Shown here one piece after another: positions 9,395 through 20,969 of a DNA stretch of 64,000 bases (positions are counted from its first letter, which is position 1; each line of letters starts with the position of its first letter). The DNA is from Mucispirillum schaedleri ASF457 (lineage in GTDB: Bacteria > Chrysiogenota > Deferribacteres > Deferribacterales > Mucispirillaceae): contig NZ_CP097562.1 of the NCBI RefSeq assembly GCF_000487995.2, forward strand, positions 2,105,001-2,169,000, given 5' to 3'. The position numbers and the translations under genes are program-made. The notes beneath the pieces were generated by a model. The model searched no databases, was not told where the DNA came from, and saw nothing but the letters and a program-made list of their open reading frames with translations.

Positions 9395-10488
9395 TCTTAA
9401 CTAACAGGACATATGTTACATTTTTAATAAAAAATAAATCTTAATTTAATATAAATCAAGCAATAATTTATTTTCAATAACAATCTCATATGGAGATTTA
9501 AAATTTAAGCATGTTTTAGCAGTATTATTATATCTATCTTCATGCTGTTTAAGAGCCTTAATTAATTCATCTTTGGAATAGAATTTATTATTTGCATATA
9601 AAATTTTTCCATCCTCTCTATGACTTCTTTCCACCTTTCCATTCTGCCAAGGTGAATAAGGTCTTATTCGTTTAATAGTATATCCTTTCTTTTCAGCTGT
9701 CTCTTCAAAATAGCTTTTCTTGTTTGTAACTTCCTTATCATTTACAAACTCATAGCCATTATCCACTTGAATTGTTTTTAGTGGAAAGCCAAATTTACTT
9801 TCCAGTTCGTCTAAAAACTTACCTGTTTCAAATGTGCTTTTTTCTTCTACTATTTCTAATATTCTCATTCTGCTGTATTCATCTATCGCTGTTATCTGAT
9901 AATATTTTTTACCATAGCTGGAAAACATTATACATTCCTGTGGAACATATTTTATATCTATCTGAACCTTGTCGCCTATATACTGACCTGTTATTGGTTC
10001 ATATCTTGTATAGCTCTTTTTTGACTTGTTTAATGACTTTAAGCCTTTCTTCCTTATCTGCATACACATACTGCCAAAACTACGATTATAACCAATTTCT
10101 AGAAGTCTGACATATACCTCCGCATTACCATACAAACCATGTTCGGCATATGTGTTAAATATTAAATCAAGCTCTTCTTTACTATGCTTATTTGGACTGG
10201 TTCTTGGTCTACGACTTTTAAAAGATAAACTCTGAACTGTTCCATCATATTTCTTTAAATGCCTGTATACAAACATACGGTTCACTTGATATTTGCGGGC
10301 TGCTTTCGTTGCTCCTTTTTTTAATGCATACTCACATAACCGTTGACGAAATCGCATTTCTTCTGTTATTATCACTTTATTCATTGTTATACCTCTTAGT
10401 TTAGTTTAGTTTTTTGCTTAATTTTATACTATATACTAAGAGGTATTTTGTTATACTTATTTTTGTAACATATGTCTTATACTCTTAC
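9395..10488 (-). mobile_element. 1,094-bp insertion sequence, copy 2
   Basis: Same length and orientation as copy 1. The right flank (10489-10514) matches the left flank of copy 1, while its own left flank (ending 9394) matches neither. It is closest in sequence to copy 5: both share the ACATATG form of the left inner motif and an I instead of V in the transposase. Confidence 0.9.
9446..10384 (-). CDS. DDE transposase of the 1,094-bp IS, copy 2
   Basis: 312 residues, full length, with the D143/D208/E252 triad intact. It differs from copy 1 by S instead of N before KFGF, I instead of V in RILEIV, and Q instead of K near residue 280. It is probably functional and may act in trans on the other four copies. 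Confidence 0.92.
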   Translation of the reverse strand: MNKVIITEEMRFRQRLCEYALKKGATKAARKYQVNRMFVYRHLKKYDGTVQSLSFKSRRPRTSPNKHSKEELDLIFNTYAEHGLYGNAEVYVRLLEIGYNRSFGSMCMQIRKKGLKSLNKSKKSYTRYEPITGQYIGDKVQIDIKYVPQECIMFSSYGKKYYQITAIDEYSRMRILEIVEEKSTFETGKFLDELESKFGFPLKTIQVDNGYEFVNDKEVTNKKSYFEETAEKKGYTIKRIRPYSPWQNGKVERSHREDGKILYANNKFYSKDELIKALKQHEDRYNNTAKTCLNFKSPYEIVIENKLLLDLY

Positions 10489-10514: not shown

Positions 10515-11680
10515 AAAATCTAAAAACGATTGCAACATTTTAAGCAGTTGTTTAAGTTCTCATAAAATATATCATTAGCCGATTTATAATTAAATAATTT
10601 TCTAGGATAATTATTCATCCAGTCTTGTATTTTTTTAATATAAGCAGCTGAAAAGTTTTTAATATCAGTTTTCTTTTTAATAAATTTCCTTATAAGTTTA
10701 TTATTATTCTCATTACTTCCCCTCTCCCAAGAGCAATAAGGGTGAGCATAATAAATAGTTGTTCGTTTAGATACTTTATCATACACTGATTTTTCTAAAC
10801 CTGCCATATCTAAAAATTCTACACCATTATCTACTGTTATGCTCTTAAATATTAAGCTGAATTTATCTTTATACTTTCTTTCTAACTTATCTAATGCTGC
10901 TATTATACTTTTCTGTGTTTTATTTCTTAATTTGATTATTATTTCAAACCGTGATACTCGTTCTGTAAGCACCAGTAAGGCTGATTTACTGCCTTGTTTG
11001 CCCACCACTGTATCCATCTCCCAATTGCCATATAGTCGCTCTTTCAGTTCAAATGGTCGTTCGTCTATACTTCTGCCGCGTGTATTATTATAGGCTGTTC
11101 GTGGATTACTTTTACATTGTTTAGTATATTTTCTATATTCTATACTTTCTAATAGTCCTAATGATATATAGTTATATATTGTTTGGGTACTTATTGTTGA
11201 TATACACTGATGCCTTAACTCTCCAGATATAACATCTGGGGAATACTTCTCATCTAACTTACTCTGTATATAGTCTAATAAGCCATATTCAATGTTATAT
11301 TGTAATTTCCTACCTGTTTTACTCATTAAACCTTGCCTTATATTTAGAGAATAGTATGCACTATATTCTTTCCTTACACTCAAGTCACTGTTGAGAAATT
11401 CCACTGTCCCTCGCTTTATTTCTCGGTATATCGTGCTTTTAGACCTGCATAATATCTACGCTATTTCCAACACACTAACTTTGGATTTCAACAGACCTTC
11501 TAATTTATAACACTCAAATGCATTTAAGTGTTTATTTTTACGATTTTTTGGTGTAGTATCCATTTGTGGTTGTTACCTCTCTTACTCTATTTTTTGGCTA
11601 AAAAATATTATTTTATTTAAAGAGTTTTAACAACCACTTTTTTATTTATTCACTTTTTCGCAATCGTTTTTAGATTTTAC
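10513..11680 (-). mobile_element. IS30-family element
   Basis: The 1,168-bp element is bounded by perfect 21-bp inverted repeats, 10513-10533 and 11660-11680, beginning GTAAAATCTAAAAACG. It encodes one transposase on the minus strand, broken by a stop codon. Just outside, ATTTTATATATTCTT occurs on both sides (about 10495-10510 and 11682-11696), which is longer than the usual 2-3-bp IS30 target duplication. That may be coincidence in AT-rich DNA. Confidence 0.9.
10520..11563 (-). pseudogene. IS30-family transposase interrupted by an in-frame TAG
   Basis: The full frame would start at the ATG complementary to 11561-11563 and encode 347 residues. Codon 36 is TAG (complement of 11456-11458), where homologues keep the helix-turn-helix reading open. 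The sequence before it (MDTTPKNRKNKHLNAFECYK) and after it (ILCRSKSTIYREIKRGTV) continues in one frame, so this is a single nonsense change and not a frameshift. Downstream, the DDE domain is intact (NWEMDTVVGKQG; ITVDNGVEF; ERGSNENNNKLIRKFIKK). The 294-residue piece starting at 11404 lacks the DNA-binding N-terminus. Unless the stop is suppressed, the element is immobile on its own. Confidence 0.88.
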
Positions 11681-14753: not shown

Positions 14754-14780
14754 AGGGCGGTTTTTCCGCCCTTTATTTTT
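14754..14780 (+). terminator. Rho-independent terminator
   Basis: AGGGCGG (14754-14760), a five-T loop, CCGCCCT (14766-14772), then T-rich sequence on the plus strand. It lies between two convergent genes. Confidence 0.88.
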
Positions 14781-16053
14781 ATAAACCTGTTTTATACCCT
14801 TTAATAATAGATACAAACCTTTTTGGGTGCATAACAATAAGTATAATTGTAAATACTATATATATAACACTGAAAGTTATAAGCACAGTATCATGTGGTG
14901 TTGCATTTGGAATATATGCAGGAAGCATTTTATCATAAAATGGTGATAAAAATTGCAGCATAAATAATGCAAGAAGAGCAAAAGCTTCTTTTCTACCAGC
15001 AACAAGTCCTGCGATTAATGCAATAGCAAATGCAGATTGAGCAGCAGTTAACAGCAGTTCATGCATCTGCATAGCTGCAAGCGGCATAACTGTATAGAAG
15101 AAACCAGTATTATGTGGGTGGTCTGCTGTAGAGTAAGAAATGCTGTAAACAAGTGGTATCATACCAACAAGCAGTGTCCATTGGTTTAGTTTTGAAGAAA
15201 CAAGGCTTCCAAGGGCAAGTCCTGCACTTCCGCGGAGAGCAAAAGTAACAGCTACAATAAATTCTGGAGCTTCTGAAGCAATTGGAGCAAGCCACTGAAC
15301 AAGTAAAAATTCATTTACACCAAGCAGTTTACCGCTTGAAACAAGGCTTTCGCTGAATAATTCTGCATCTGCAAAAATAACTACGGCAGATATTAAGAAA
15401 AGCCCCCATGTAACAATAAGTCTTTTTTGTTTTGGGAGAGCAGCGATTGTTTTTGCGGGTCCTTCTATTTCTTCATTTTCTACTGGTTTTCTAATAATAA
15501 TAGTAATATACCATATAAAAATACCTATTAAAACAACAGTATCAAAAAGATTTAAAAAGCCTTTTAATGGGATAGTAATTGCATATATAGTAGCAAGCAT
15601 TAAAAAAAACAGTTCTGTTTTATGAGTGGATTCCAGCACAACTTTTTTTCTGAATTTAAAAGCAAATATTAAAATAATTACAGACCAGCCTACACCAATA
15701 AGAAGCCTGTTTGCACCTGTCATATTTGCAACAGCATAGTGGACATATTCACCCTGTGGGTCCTGTCCAGCCATCCATGTAAAATACATATCAACAGCAT
15801 ATTCTGGCAGCACTGCAATTAAAGCGACAAGAGCAACTGCAACAGCCTGAGGAATATCAAGCTGCATGACTTCGCATGCCCATGTTAAAATAAATGATGC
15901 AGAAAATATTGCAACAGCAGTAATCAGTGTCATAACAATAGGGTGCAGTTCTATACCAATCACTCTAAGCATAAAGCCCGGAATTGTTGCTGTAACTGCA
16001 ATAATAATTGGCATCCAGTTTTTCATATTTTTCTCCTTTTTATTTTTTTGCAC
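14779..16053 (-). CDS. Cation exchanger of the Na+/Ca2+ (CaCA) family, probably manganese-linked
   Basis: A 424-residue membrane protein with two internally repeated alpha-motifs typical of CaCA exchangers. The first is ALIAVLPEYAVDMYFTWMA with NMTGANRLLIG; the second is PIASEAPEFIVAVTFALRG with LGSLVSSKLNQWTLLVG. The two acidic positions in VLPEY and SEAPE would bind the cation. Around 11 membrane helices are expected, with a linker of charged residues in the middle. The gene lies directly behind a yybP-ykoY-type riboswitch and its terminator. That RNA class senses Mn2+, so Mn2+ export is a more likely job than Ca2+ transport (inference from context). A ribosome-binding site, AGGAG, precedes the start. 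Confidence 0.85.
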   Translation of the reverse strand: MQKNKKEKNMKNWMPIIIAVTATIPGFMLRVIGIELHPIVMTLITAVAIFSASFILTWACEVMQLDIPQAVAVALVALIAVLPEYAVDMYFTWMAGQDPQGEYVHYAVANMTGANRLLIGVGWSVIILIFAFKFRKKVVLESTHKTELFFLMLATIYAITIPLKGFLNLFDTVVLIGIFIWYITIIIRKPVENEEIEGPAKTIAALPKQKRLIVTWGLFLISAVVIFADAELFSESLVSSGKLLGVNEFLLVQWLAPIASEAPEFIVAVTFALRGSAGLALGSLVSSKLNQWTLLVGMIPLVYSISYSTADHPHNTGFFYTVMPLAAMQMHELLLTAAQSAFAIALIAGLVAGRKEAFALLALFMLQFLSPFYDKMLPAYIPNATPHDTVLITFSVIYIVFTIILIVMHPKRFVSIIKGYKTGL

Positions 16054-16056
16054 ATA

Positions 16057-16094
16057 TAAAAAAAGACCTTCGGCATGTAAAATGCCGAAGGTCT
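16057..16094 (-). terminator. Riboswitch-controlled terminator
   Basis: AGACCTTCGGCAT pairs perfectly over 13 bp (16064-16076 with 16082-16094) across a 5-nt loop, followed on the minus strand by T's at 16057-16063. The first strand of this hairpin includes the GACC segment of the aptamer, so ligand binding and termination should exclude each other. Confidence 0.85.
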
Positions 16095-16192
16095 TGCCAA
16101 TGATTTTCTAAATCAATGATAAAGCCAGTGTTATAAAAATAACACGAGATTGTTGACTTTATCCAAACAAATTTGGGCTACTCCCCTTCACA
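16082..16192 (-). promoter_or_regulatory. yybP-ykoY-type (Mn2+) riboswitch aptamer
   Basis: On the minus strand the leader begins GAAGGGGAGTAGCCC (16178-16192) and ends with AAGACCTTCGGC (16084-16095). These are the two conserved internal-loop halves of the yybP-ykoY class. Paired helices lie between them: TCGTGTTATTTTTATAACACTGG forms one hairpin and ATTGATTTAGAAAATCATT another. The class is known to bind Mn2+ and to switch on manganese-export genes. It sits between rpsT and the exchanger gene. Confidence comes from the motifs and the terminator overlap; a covariance-model search was not possible. Confidence 0.82.
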
Positions 16193-16270
16193 TAAAAAAG
16201 GACAGCATTATATAAAATTAAAATACTATAATAAAAAGTGCTGCAATTATTTATTATATATTTAATAAAA

Positions 16271-16543
16271 CTATTTATTTACAGTTTGTGCTTTGTTAAA
16301 CTTCATAGTAAGGCGTGAAACTTTACGGGAAGCTTGTTTTTTATGGATAGCACCTTTGCGTGCAGTTTTATAAATAACACTTACAGCTTGTTTTAATAAT
16401 GCTTCAGTATTATCAGCACCAGTTTCTAAAGCTTTCATATATTTTTTAATATATGTTTTCATAGCTGATTTATTAGATTTGTTAATCAGTCTTCTTTTTT
16501 CTGACTGACGAATACGCTTTAAAGCTGACAAAGTATGTGCCAC
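16271..16543 (-). CDS. rpsT: 30S ribosomal protein S20
   Basis: A 90-residue, strongly basic, helical protein starting MAHTLSALKRIRQSEKRR, with NKSNKSAMKTYIKK and the C-terminal GAIHKKQASRKVSRL. These are the standard S20 landmarks, and length is normal. It binds 16S rRNA in the small subunit. The gene is read on its own; the spacer upstream also holds the divergent promoter of the GGGtGRT pair. Downstream lies the Mn2+ riboswitch leader of the exchanger gene. Confidence 0.95.
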   Translation of the reverse strand: MAHTLSALKRIRQSEKRRLINKSNKSAMKTYIKKYMKALETGADNTEALLKQAVSVIYKTARKGAIHKKQASRKVSRLTMKFNKAQTVNK

Positions 16544-20030: not shown

Positions 20031-20969
20031 ATGAATAAAGTGATAATAACAGAAGAAATGCGATTTCGTCAACGGTTATGTGAGTATGCATTAAAAAAAG
20101 GAGCAACGAAAGCAGCCCGCAAATATCAAGTGAACCGTATGTTTGTATACAGGCATTTAAAGAAATATGATGGAACAGTTCAGAGTTTATCTTTTAAAAG
20201 TCGTAGACCAAGAACCAGTCCAAATAAGCATAGTAAAGAAGAGCTTGATTTAATATTTAACACATATGCCGAGCATGGTTTGTATGGTAATGCGGAGGTA
20301 TATGTCAGACTTCTAGAAATTGGTTATAATCGTAGTTTTGGCAGTATGTGTATGCAGATAAGGAAGAAAGGCTTAAAGTCATTAAACAAGTCAAAAAAGA
20401 GCTATACAAGATATGAACCAATAACAGGTCAGTATATAGGCGACAAGGTTCAGATAGATATAAAATATGTTCCACAGGAATGTATAATGTTTTCCAGCTA
20501 TGGTAAAAAATATTATCAGATAACAGCGATAGATGAATACAGCAGAATGAGAGTATTAGAAATAGTAGAAGAAAAAAGCACATTTGAAACAGGTAAGTTT
20601 TTAGACGAACTGGAAAGTAAATTTGGCTTTCCACTAAAAACAATTCAAGTGGATAATGGCTATGAGTTTGTAAATGATAAGGAAGTTACAAACAAGAAAA
20701 GCTATTTTGAAGAGACAGCTGAAAAGAAAGGATATACTATTAAACGAATAAGACCTTATTCACCTTGGCAGAATGGAAAGGTGGAAAGAAGTCATAGAGA
20801 GGATGGAAAAATTTTATATGCAAATAATAAATTCTATTCCAAAGATGAATTAATTAAGGCTCTTAAACAGCATGAAGATAGATATAATAATACTGCTAAA
20901 ACATGCTTAAATTTTAAATCTCCATATGAGATTGTTATTGAAAATAAATTATTGCTTGATTTATATTAA
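20031..20969 (+). CDS. DDE transposase of the 1,094-bp IS, copy 3
   Basis: Full-length 312 residues with the same HTH and D143/D208/E252 residues as the other copies. It has V in RVLEIV, S in ESKFGF and Q in LKQHED. It is read divergently from the M29 peptidase gene and sits between that gene and its former upstream region. Confidence 0.93.
   Translation: MNKVIITEEMRFRQRLCEYALKKGATKAARKYQVNRMFVYRHLKKYDGTVQSLSFKSRRPRTSPNKHSKEELDLIFNTYAEHGLYGNAEVYVRLLEIGYNRSFGSMCMQIRKKGLKSLNKSKKSYTRYEPITGQYIGDKVQIDIKYVPQECIMFSSYGKKYYQITAIDEYSRMRVLEIVEEKSTFETGKFLDELESKFGFPLKTIQVDNGYEFVNDKEVTNKKSYFEETAEKKGYTIKRIRPYSPWQNGKVERSHREDGKILYANNKFYSKDELIKALKQHEDRYNNTAKTCLNFKSPYEIVIENKLLLDLY

What the first reader, a model, noticed from the sequence alone, without database searches (positions are those of the whole stretch)
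14779..16192. Mn2+ riboswitch (yybP-ykoY type) controls a Na+/Ca2+-exchanger-family gene
Seen: a leader with GGGGAGTAGC and AGACCTTCGGC and a perfect 13-bp terminator that uses the second motif, directly before the exchanger. Known: this RNA class binds Mn2+ and controls manganese export or homeostasis genes. Inferred: this CaCA protein is a manganese exporter, not a calcium exchanger.
Basis: partly seen in the sequence, partly recalled or inferred. Interest (0 to 1): 0.6.

Follow-up and report, generated by a model that had tools for sequence, protein, structure and literature searches.

The report
Manganese riboswitch before a cation exchanger
A gut bacterium (Mucispirillum) carries a genuine manganese-type RNA switch in front of a cation-exchanger gene that databases call a calcium exchanger, and the same pairing recurs across several bacterial phyla, which suggests that this transporter expels manganese, perhaps along with calcium.

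Summary
On the minus strand, 16192..16058 is a yybP-ykoY (Mn2+) riboswitch with an overlapping 14-bp terminator, just before a 415-aa exchanger gene (ATG at 16026). Rfam's cut-off is missed (25.6 of 45 bits), but the E. coli mntP riboswitch misses it too (41.6). A covariance model built only from exchanger leaders of other phyla hits the window (56 bits, its only hit in the 2.35-Mb genome) and also the E. coli mntP and alx leaders. 13 of 20 pairs covary on both sides; the Mn2+-reading adenosine is invariant in 43 of 43. The leader precedes the exchanger in 53 of 79 relatives from several phyla. Predicted nascent folds switch from aptamer to terminator, as in the L. lactis Mn2+ ON-switch. The protein belongs with the H+/Ca2+ exchanger CAX (PDB 4kpp; 39% identity). 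The genome lacks MntP, GDT1/UPF0016 and TerC. Manganese export is therefore likely. 'Not a calcium exchanger' is unsupported: the nearest solved relative carries Ca2+, and this is the genome's only CaCA protein. Caveats: an L3 loop one base longer than in solved Mn2+ aptamers, and no ligand or transport data.

The parts
16085..16192 (-). yybP-ykoY (Mn2+) riboswitch aptamer: four-way-junction fold with P1.1, P1, P2, P3/P3.1 and P4
   Evidence: R1 model 56 bits, E 5e-11; RF00080 25.6 bits; covariation on 43 homologues
16177..16186 (-). L1 motif GGGGAGUAGC
   Evidence: GGGAGUA and the closing C are invariant in 43 homologues
16185..16189 (-). 5' strand of switch helix P1.1 (GAAGG)
   Evidence: pairs with 16091..16087; three of its five pairs covary on both sides, helix paired in 98.6% of cells
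16146..16153 (-). L3 loop ACAAUCUC, 8 bases; 16151 is the counterpart of the Mn2+-reading adenosine (A41 of L. lactis, A48 of X. oryzae)
   Evidence: adenosine invariant in 43 of 43; loop lengths; role of the adenosine from PMC6754395
16087..16091 (-). 3' strand of P1.1 (CCUUC), shared with the terminator stem
16063..16095 (-). intrinsic terminator, 14-bp perfect stem with 5-base loop; U tract 16064..16058
   Evidence: -22.6 kcal/mol
16207..16212 (-). TATAAT, possible -10 box of the leader's own promoter
   Evidence: seen in the sequence; no -35 partner found and the promoter scan is not above chance; unproven
14779..16026 (-). CAX-type cation antiporter of the CaCA superfamily, 415 aa, probable start ATG 16026 with GGAG six bases upstream
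   Evidence: PF01699 83 bits; PDB 4kpp phmmer E 5e-84, TM-score 0.84; the GTG at 16053 listed by the ORF listing lies just past the terminator and is less likely

Best explanation
A transcriptional Mn2+ ON-switch. When Mn2+ is low, the 3' strand of helix P1.1 (CCUUC) is drawn into a 14-bp terminator and transcription stops before the gene. When Mn2+ is high, the ion is read at the L1-L3 interface through the N7 of adenosine 16151, docks the two legs of the aptamer, stabilises P1.1 (GAAGG/CCUUC), and lets RNA polymerase read through into the exchanger gene. The product is a CAX-type, probably H+-coupled, divalent cation antiporter that exports the excess Mn2+ and may also export Ca2+. Shown here: RNA homology, covariation, the overlap of the two helices, conserved linkage to the gene, and the protein family. 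Inferred: Mn2+ as ligand, direction of switching, and Mn2+ as transported ion.
For: A model from 33 exchanger leaders outside Deferribacterota (R1) finds the window as its only hit in the genome, and finds the E. coli mntP leader at 46.6 bits (E 4e-9) and the alx leader at 24.5 bits as the only hits in 53.5 kb. It also finds 7 of 9 plasmid MntP leaders. Covariation: 174 two-sided cells against 52 in shuffles, 96.8% of cells paired against 23-48% in slid controls. Adenosine invariant 43 of 43. Leader before the exchanger in 53 of 79 relatives with upstream DNA: Deferribacterota, Desulfovibrionales, Syntrophobacteraceae, Armatimonadetes, Acidobacteria, WS1, Zipacnadia. Nascent transcripts of 106-120 bases fold with P1.1 formed; from 126 bases the terminator wins, matching the L. 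lactis mechanism (PMC11087558). The genome has no MntP, GDT1, TerC or Nramp, and its one CDF protein is nearest FieF. The fold matches the solved H+/Ca2+ exchanger CAX.
Against: The L3 loop has 8 bases, against 7 in L. lactis, X. oryzae and E. coli mntP, so metal selectivity could differ. RF00080 gathering score not reached. The closest solved relative carries Ca2+, and the genome has no other CaCA protein or Cation_ATPase_C-type pump for Ca2+. The CDF protein also scores with the MntE model, below its cut-off, so another Mn exporter is not excluded. 26 of 79 relatives lack a detected leader. Similar RNAs also precede nhaA and Tim44-like genes, so the class is not tied only to Mn exporters. 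No ligand binding, expression or transport data.
Confidence: 0.8

Rival explanations
1. The RNA is a Mn2+ riboswitch, but the exchanger's main job is Ca2+/H+ exchange; Mn2+ induces it because Mn2+ stress upsets Ca2+ handling, or because Mn2+ is only a minor substrate.
For: Nearest solved relative is an H+/Ca2+ exchanger; only CaCA protein in the genome and no Cation_ATPase_C-type pump.
Against: Riboswitches normally report the substrate of the gene they control (general knowledge); the leader is kept before this family in several phyla; some CAX proteins carry Mn2+ as well as Ca2+ (PMC4982074).
Confidence: 0.12
2. A yybP-ykoY variant whose altered L3 loop has changed the ligand to another divalent metal, possibly Ca2+ itself.
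For: 8-base L3 loop in Mucispirillum, its sister genus and three unrelated exchanger leaders; the review PMC7266159 expects variants with other metal specificity; the target is in a calcium-exchanger family.
Against: The Mn2+-reading adenosine is invariant; orthologous exchanger genes mostly carry the standard 7-base loop, so the same gene would then be under different metals; the loop resembles that of mntP (ACAAUCUCG against ACAUACUCG).
Confidence: 0.07
3. A sodium riboswitch (DUF1646 or nhaA-I type), given that the target is annotated as a Na+/Ca2+ exchanger.
For: Databases name such proteins sodium/calcium or sodium:proton exchangers; yybP-like RNAs precede nhaA in related genomes.
Against: No DUF1646 or nhaA match among Rfam hits with E up to 10; the architecture is the four-way junction with the L1 and L3 motifs of the Mn2+ class; the DUF1646 motif is described as two extended stems (PMC9337991).
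Confidence: 0.01

Closest known systems
[quoted passage not shown]
   Same: L1 and L3 motifs, invariant adenosine, P1.1 competing with an intrinsic terminator, predicted ON-switch
   Different: L3 loop one base longer; the target here is a CAX-type exchanger (the L. lactis target is yoaB; a P-type ATPase from memory)
E. coli mntP leader
   Same: Found by the exchanger-leader model (46.6 bits); near-identical L3 motif
   Different: A translational switch per PMC11647493, without the overlapping 14-bp terminator; different transporter family; 7-base L3
H+/Ca2+ exchanger CAX (PDB 4kpp, Archaeoglobus fulgidus)
   Same: 39% identity, TM-score 0.84; E74 and E251 align with E78 and E255 (that these are the catalytic glutamates is from memory of the structure paper); SSKxNQW motif shared
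   Different: Archaeal protein studied with Ca2+; Mn2+ transport by it was not found in the papers held; no riboswitch known to me

Membership tests
Mn2+ (yybP-ykoY) riboswitch, RF00080 | Score above the Rfam gathering cut-off | tested here: not met
   25.6 of 45 bits. A curatorial threshold, not a defining feature: the E. coli mntP leader itself scores 41.6
Mn2+ (yybP-ykoY) riboswitch, RF00080 | Homology to riboswitches before recognised Mn genes | tested here: met
   R1, built without them, hits E. coli mntP and alx and 7 of 9 plasmid MntP leaders
Mn2+ (yybP-ykoY) riboswitch, RF00080 | L1 GGGGAGUAGC motif and junction with covarying P1.1, P1 and P3 | tested here: met
Mn2+ (yybP-ykoY) riboswitch, RF00080 | Invariant L3 adenosine whose N7 contacts Mn2+ | tested here: met
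   43 of 43; role from PMC6754395
Mn2+ (yybP-ykoY) riboswitch, RF00080 | L3 loop length of the solved aptamers (7 bases); not known to be required for membership | tested here: not met
   8 bases here; 7 in most exchanger leaders
Mn2+ (yybP-ykoY) riboswitch, RF00080 | Selective Mn2+ binding | not testable with these tools
   needs in-line probing or a termination assay
CAX-type branch of the CaCA superfamily | CaCA fold with two alpha repeats and conserved glutamates | tested here: met
   PF01699, 4kpp match, E74 and E251 invariant in 44 homologues
CAX-type branch of the CaCA superfamily | H+-coupled divalent cation transport | not testable with these tools
   needs vesicle transport assays
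Na+ riboswitch (DUF1646) | Rfam match | tested here: not met
   absent among hits with E up to 10

The most novel reading that the evidence does not exclude
The 4kpp (CAX) branch of the calcium exchangers is, in many bacteria, a Mn2+ efflux family under Mn2+ riboswitch control, taking the place of MntP, UPF0016 and TerC in Mucispirillum; its 8-base-L3 aptamers may be tuned to a different Mn2+ range or another metal.
Probability: 0.5. Interest if true: 0.55.

Novelty: new member of a known kind. Interest (0 to 1): 0.42.

Why it matters
The riboswitch class is known. The gain is functional: a conserved RNA sensor links Mn2+ to a transporter branch known from one solved H+/Ca2+ exchanger and usually annotated as a sodium or calcium exchanger. 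If confirmed, many such annotations would need changing, and the best candidate for the Mn2+ efflux route of a gut commensal would be identified. It also shows that the Rfam cut-off misses this whole group of riboswitches.

Tried and rejected
Rfam at gathering score on the window and on 20 relatives gave no RF00080 hit; scoring the E. coli mntP leader showed why this is uninformative. PyrR (27.9 of 54 bits) and the other low-score Rfam hits are taken as chance matches. A sodium riboswitch was considered and dropped. A viral-contig scan for the 8-base L3 form found nothing. The two founding Mn2+ riboswitch papers (Dambach 2015, Price 2015) are not in the library, so whether they list this exchanger family among targets could not be checked. 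Text searches of held papers for yybP with antiporter, calcium or CaCA terms showed no title or abstract reporting the link, but those papers were not read one by one. An earlier count said 8 of 9 MntP leaders; the correct count is 7 of 9.

Full report
WHAT IS THERE. The window is 64 kb of a complete 2.35-Mb genome whose nearest relatives are Mucispirillum, Deferribacterota. On the minus strand lie, in order, rpsT (16543..16271), the leader, and the exchanger gene (16026..14779, 415 aa). The leader carries GGGGAGUAGC and, about 80 bases later, CAAGACCUUC, which continues into a perfect 14-bp terminator (16095..16063) with a U tract. The folding energy is far below that of shuffled sequence (z -6.5).

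IS IT THE Mn2+ RIBOSWITCH? Rfam's RF00080 gives 25.6 bits, under its cut-off of 45. An independent test was then made. 80 relatives of the exchanger were fetched. 33 leaders from outside Deferribacterota were aligned (A2) and made into a covariance model (R1). R1 hits the window with 56 bits and nothing else in the genome. It also hits the E. coli mntP and alx leaders, which it had never seen, as the only two hits in 53.5 kb, and 7 of 9 MntP leaders on plasmids. The E. coli regions were chosen because they hold mntP and alx; the whole E. coli genome could not be searched. On 43 homologous leaders, 13 of 20 pairs covary on both sides, with 174 such cells against 52 in shuffles and 96.8% of cells paired against 23-48% for slid structures. 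Helix P1.1 itself covaries (G-C to A-U at columns 7/124), which is the helix that must switch.

BINDING SITE. In solved structures Mn2+ is read by the N7 of one L3 adenosine, in UCA(41)AUUC of L. lactis and ACA(48)UACU of X. oryzae (PMC6754395). Here L3 is ACA-AUCUC, and the corresponding adenosine (16151) is invariant in 43 of 43. L3 is one base longer than in those two. The same 8-base form appears in the sister genus and in three unrelated exchanger leaders (L062, L069, L070), while most exchanger leaders have 7. This is the main reason for caution on the ligand.

SWITCHING. With RNA energy rules, transcripts ending at 106-120 bases fold as the full four-way junction with P1.1 formed; once the 3' half of the terminator is made (126 bases on), the terminator takes over. 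This is the geometry of the L. lactis ON-switch, where Mn2+ stabilises P1.1 and suppresses termination (PMC11087558). The direction of switching here is inferred.

THE PROTEIN. It matches PF01699 and, in the PDB, chiefly 4kpp, the H+/Ca2+ exchanger CAX (phmmer E 5e-84; predicted model pLDDT 87.7, TM-score 0.84). E74 and E251 (numbered on the protein without its first Met) align with E78 and E255 of that protein and are invariant in 44 relatives. The alpha-2 motif SSKLNQW is nearly invariant in the relatives and shared with 4kpp (SSKVNQW). So 'Na+/Ca2+ exchanger' is the superfamily name only; H+ coupling is more likely, by kinship.

LINKAGE AND GENOME CONTEXT. 53 of the 79 relatives with upstream DNA have the leader, across several phyla. 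In Deferribacterota, R1 finds leaders in 12 of 51 genomes: Mucispirillum and one sister genus, where the same sequences precede this exchanger, and three genomes of another family, before or close to nhaA. The window genome has one CaCA protein (this one), no MntP, GDT1/UPF0016, TerC, Nramp or Cation_ATPase_C pump, one CDF protein nearest FieF, and one DtxR-family regulator. That leaves this gene as the best Mn2+ efflux candidate, but equally as the best Ca2+ efflux candidate.

CONCLUSION. Riboswitch identity is close to certain (about 0.97). Mn2+ as ligand is likely (about 0.87). The whole account, with Mn2+ export as the gene's function, I put at about 0.8, with Ca2+ as a possible second substrate. 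'Not a calcium exchanger' is unsupported. The class and its mechanism are known; the exchanger family as target may or may not have been listed before, since the founding papers could not be read.

Noticed in passing
L095 1501-1604 (-), L096 1501-1602 (+), L097 1501-1604 (-): In three other Deferribacterota genomes a yybP-ykoY-like RNA with an alx-type L3 (GUCAUUACG or GUCAGUACG) precedes nhaA, a Na+/H+ antiporter (in L097 with a short stretch or small ORF between). E. coli alx responds to alkaline pH as well as Mn2+ (literature), so a pH link is possible.
   Followed up: partly
L129 1501-1601 (-) and L131 1501-1634 (-): In two Desulfovibrio-type genomes a second yybP-like RNA precedes a gene for a Tim44-like-domain protein (Pfam run on L129 only), a target I have not seen described.
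   Followed up: partly
L128 1501-1596 (-): In a Desulforhabdus genome a second yybP-like RNA precedes a small zinc-ribbon-like protein, with a gene resembling an antiporter or NADH-dehydrogenase-type membrane subunit further down.
   Followed up: no
L125 1501-1592 (+): The Armatimonadetes genome with the exchanger leader also has a yybP-like RNA upstream of a TerC-family gene.
   Followed up: partly
L046, L052, L065 leaders: Three Desulfovibrio leaders carry an extra stretch of roughly 75-80 bases in or near P4; the model still matches the rest.
   Followed up: no
L033, L037, L041, L048, L050, L051, L055: In Humidesulfovibrio-type genomes the exchanger lacks the leader and follows a small conserved gene instead (MKD-LG-YY-P...).
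   Followed up: no
window 9446-10384 (-) and 20031-20969 (+): Two nearly identical transposase genes in opposite orientation flank this region; another transposase-like gene lies at 10520-11404.
   Followed up: no
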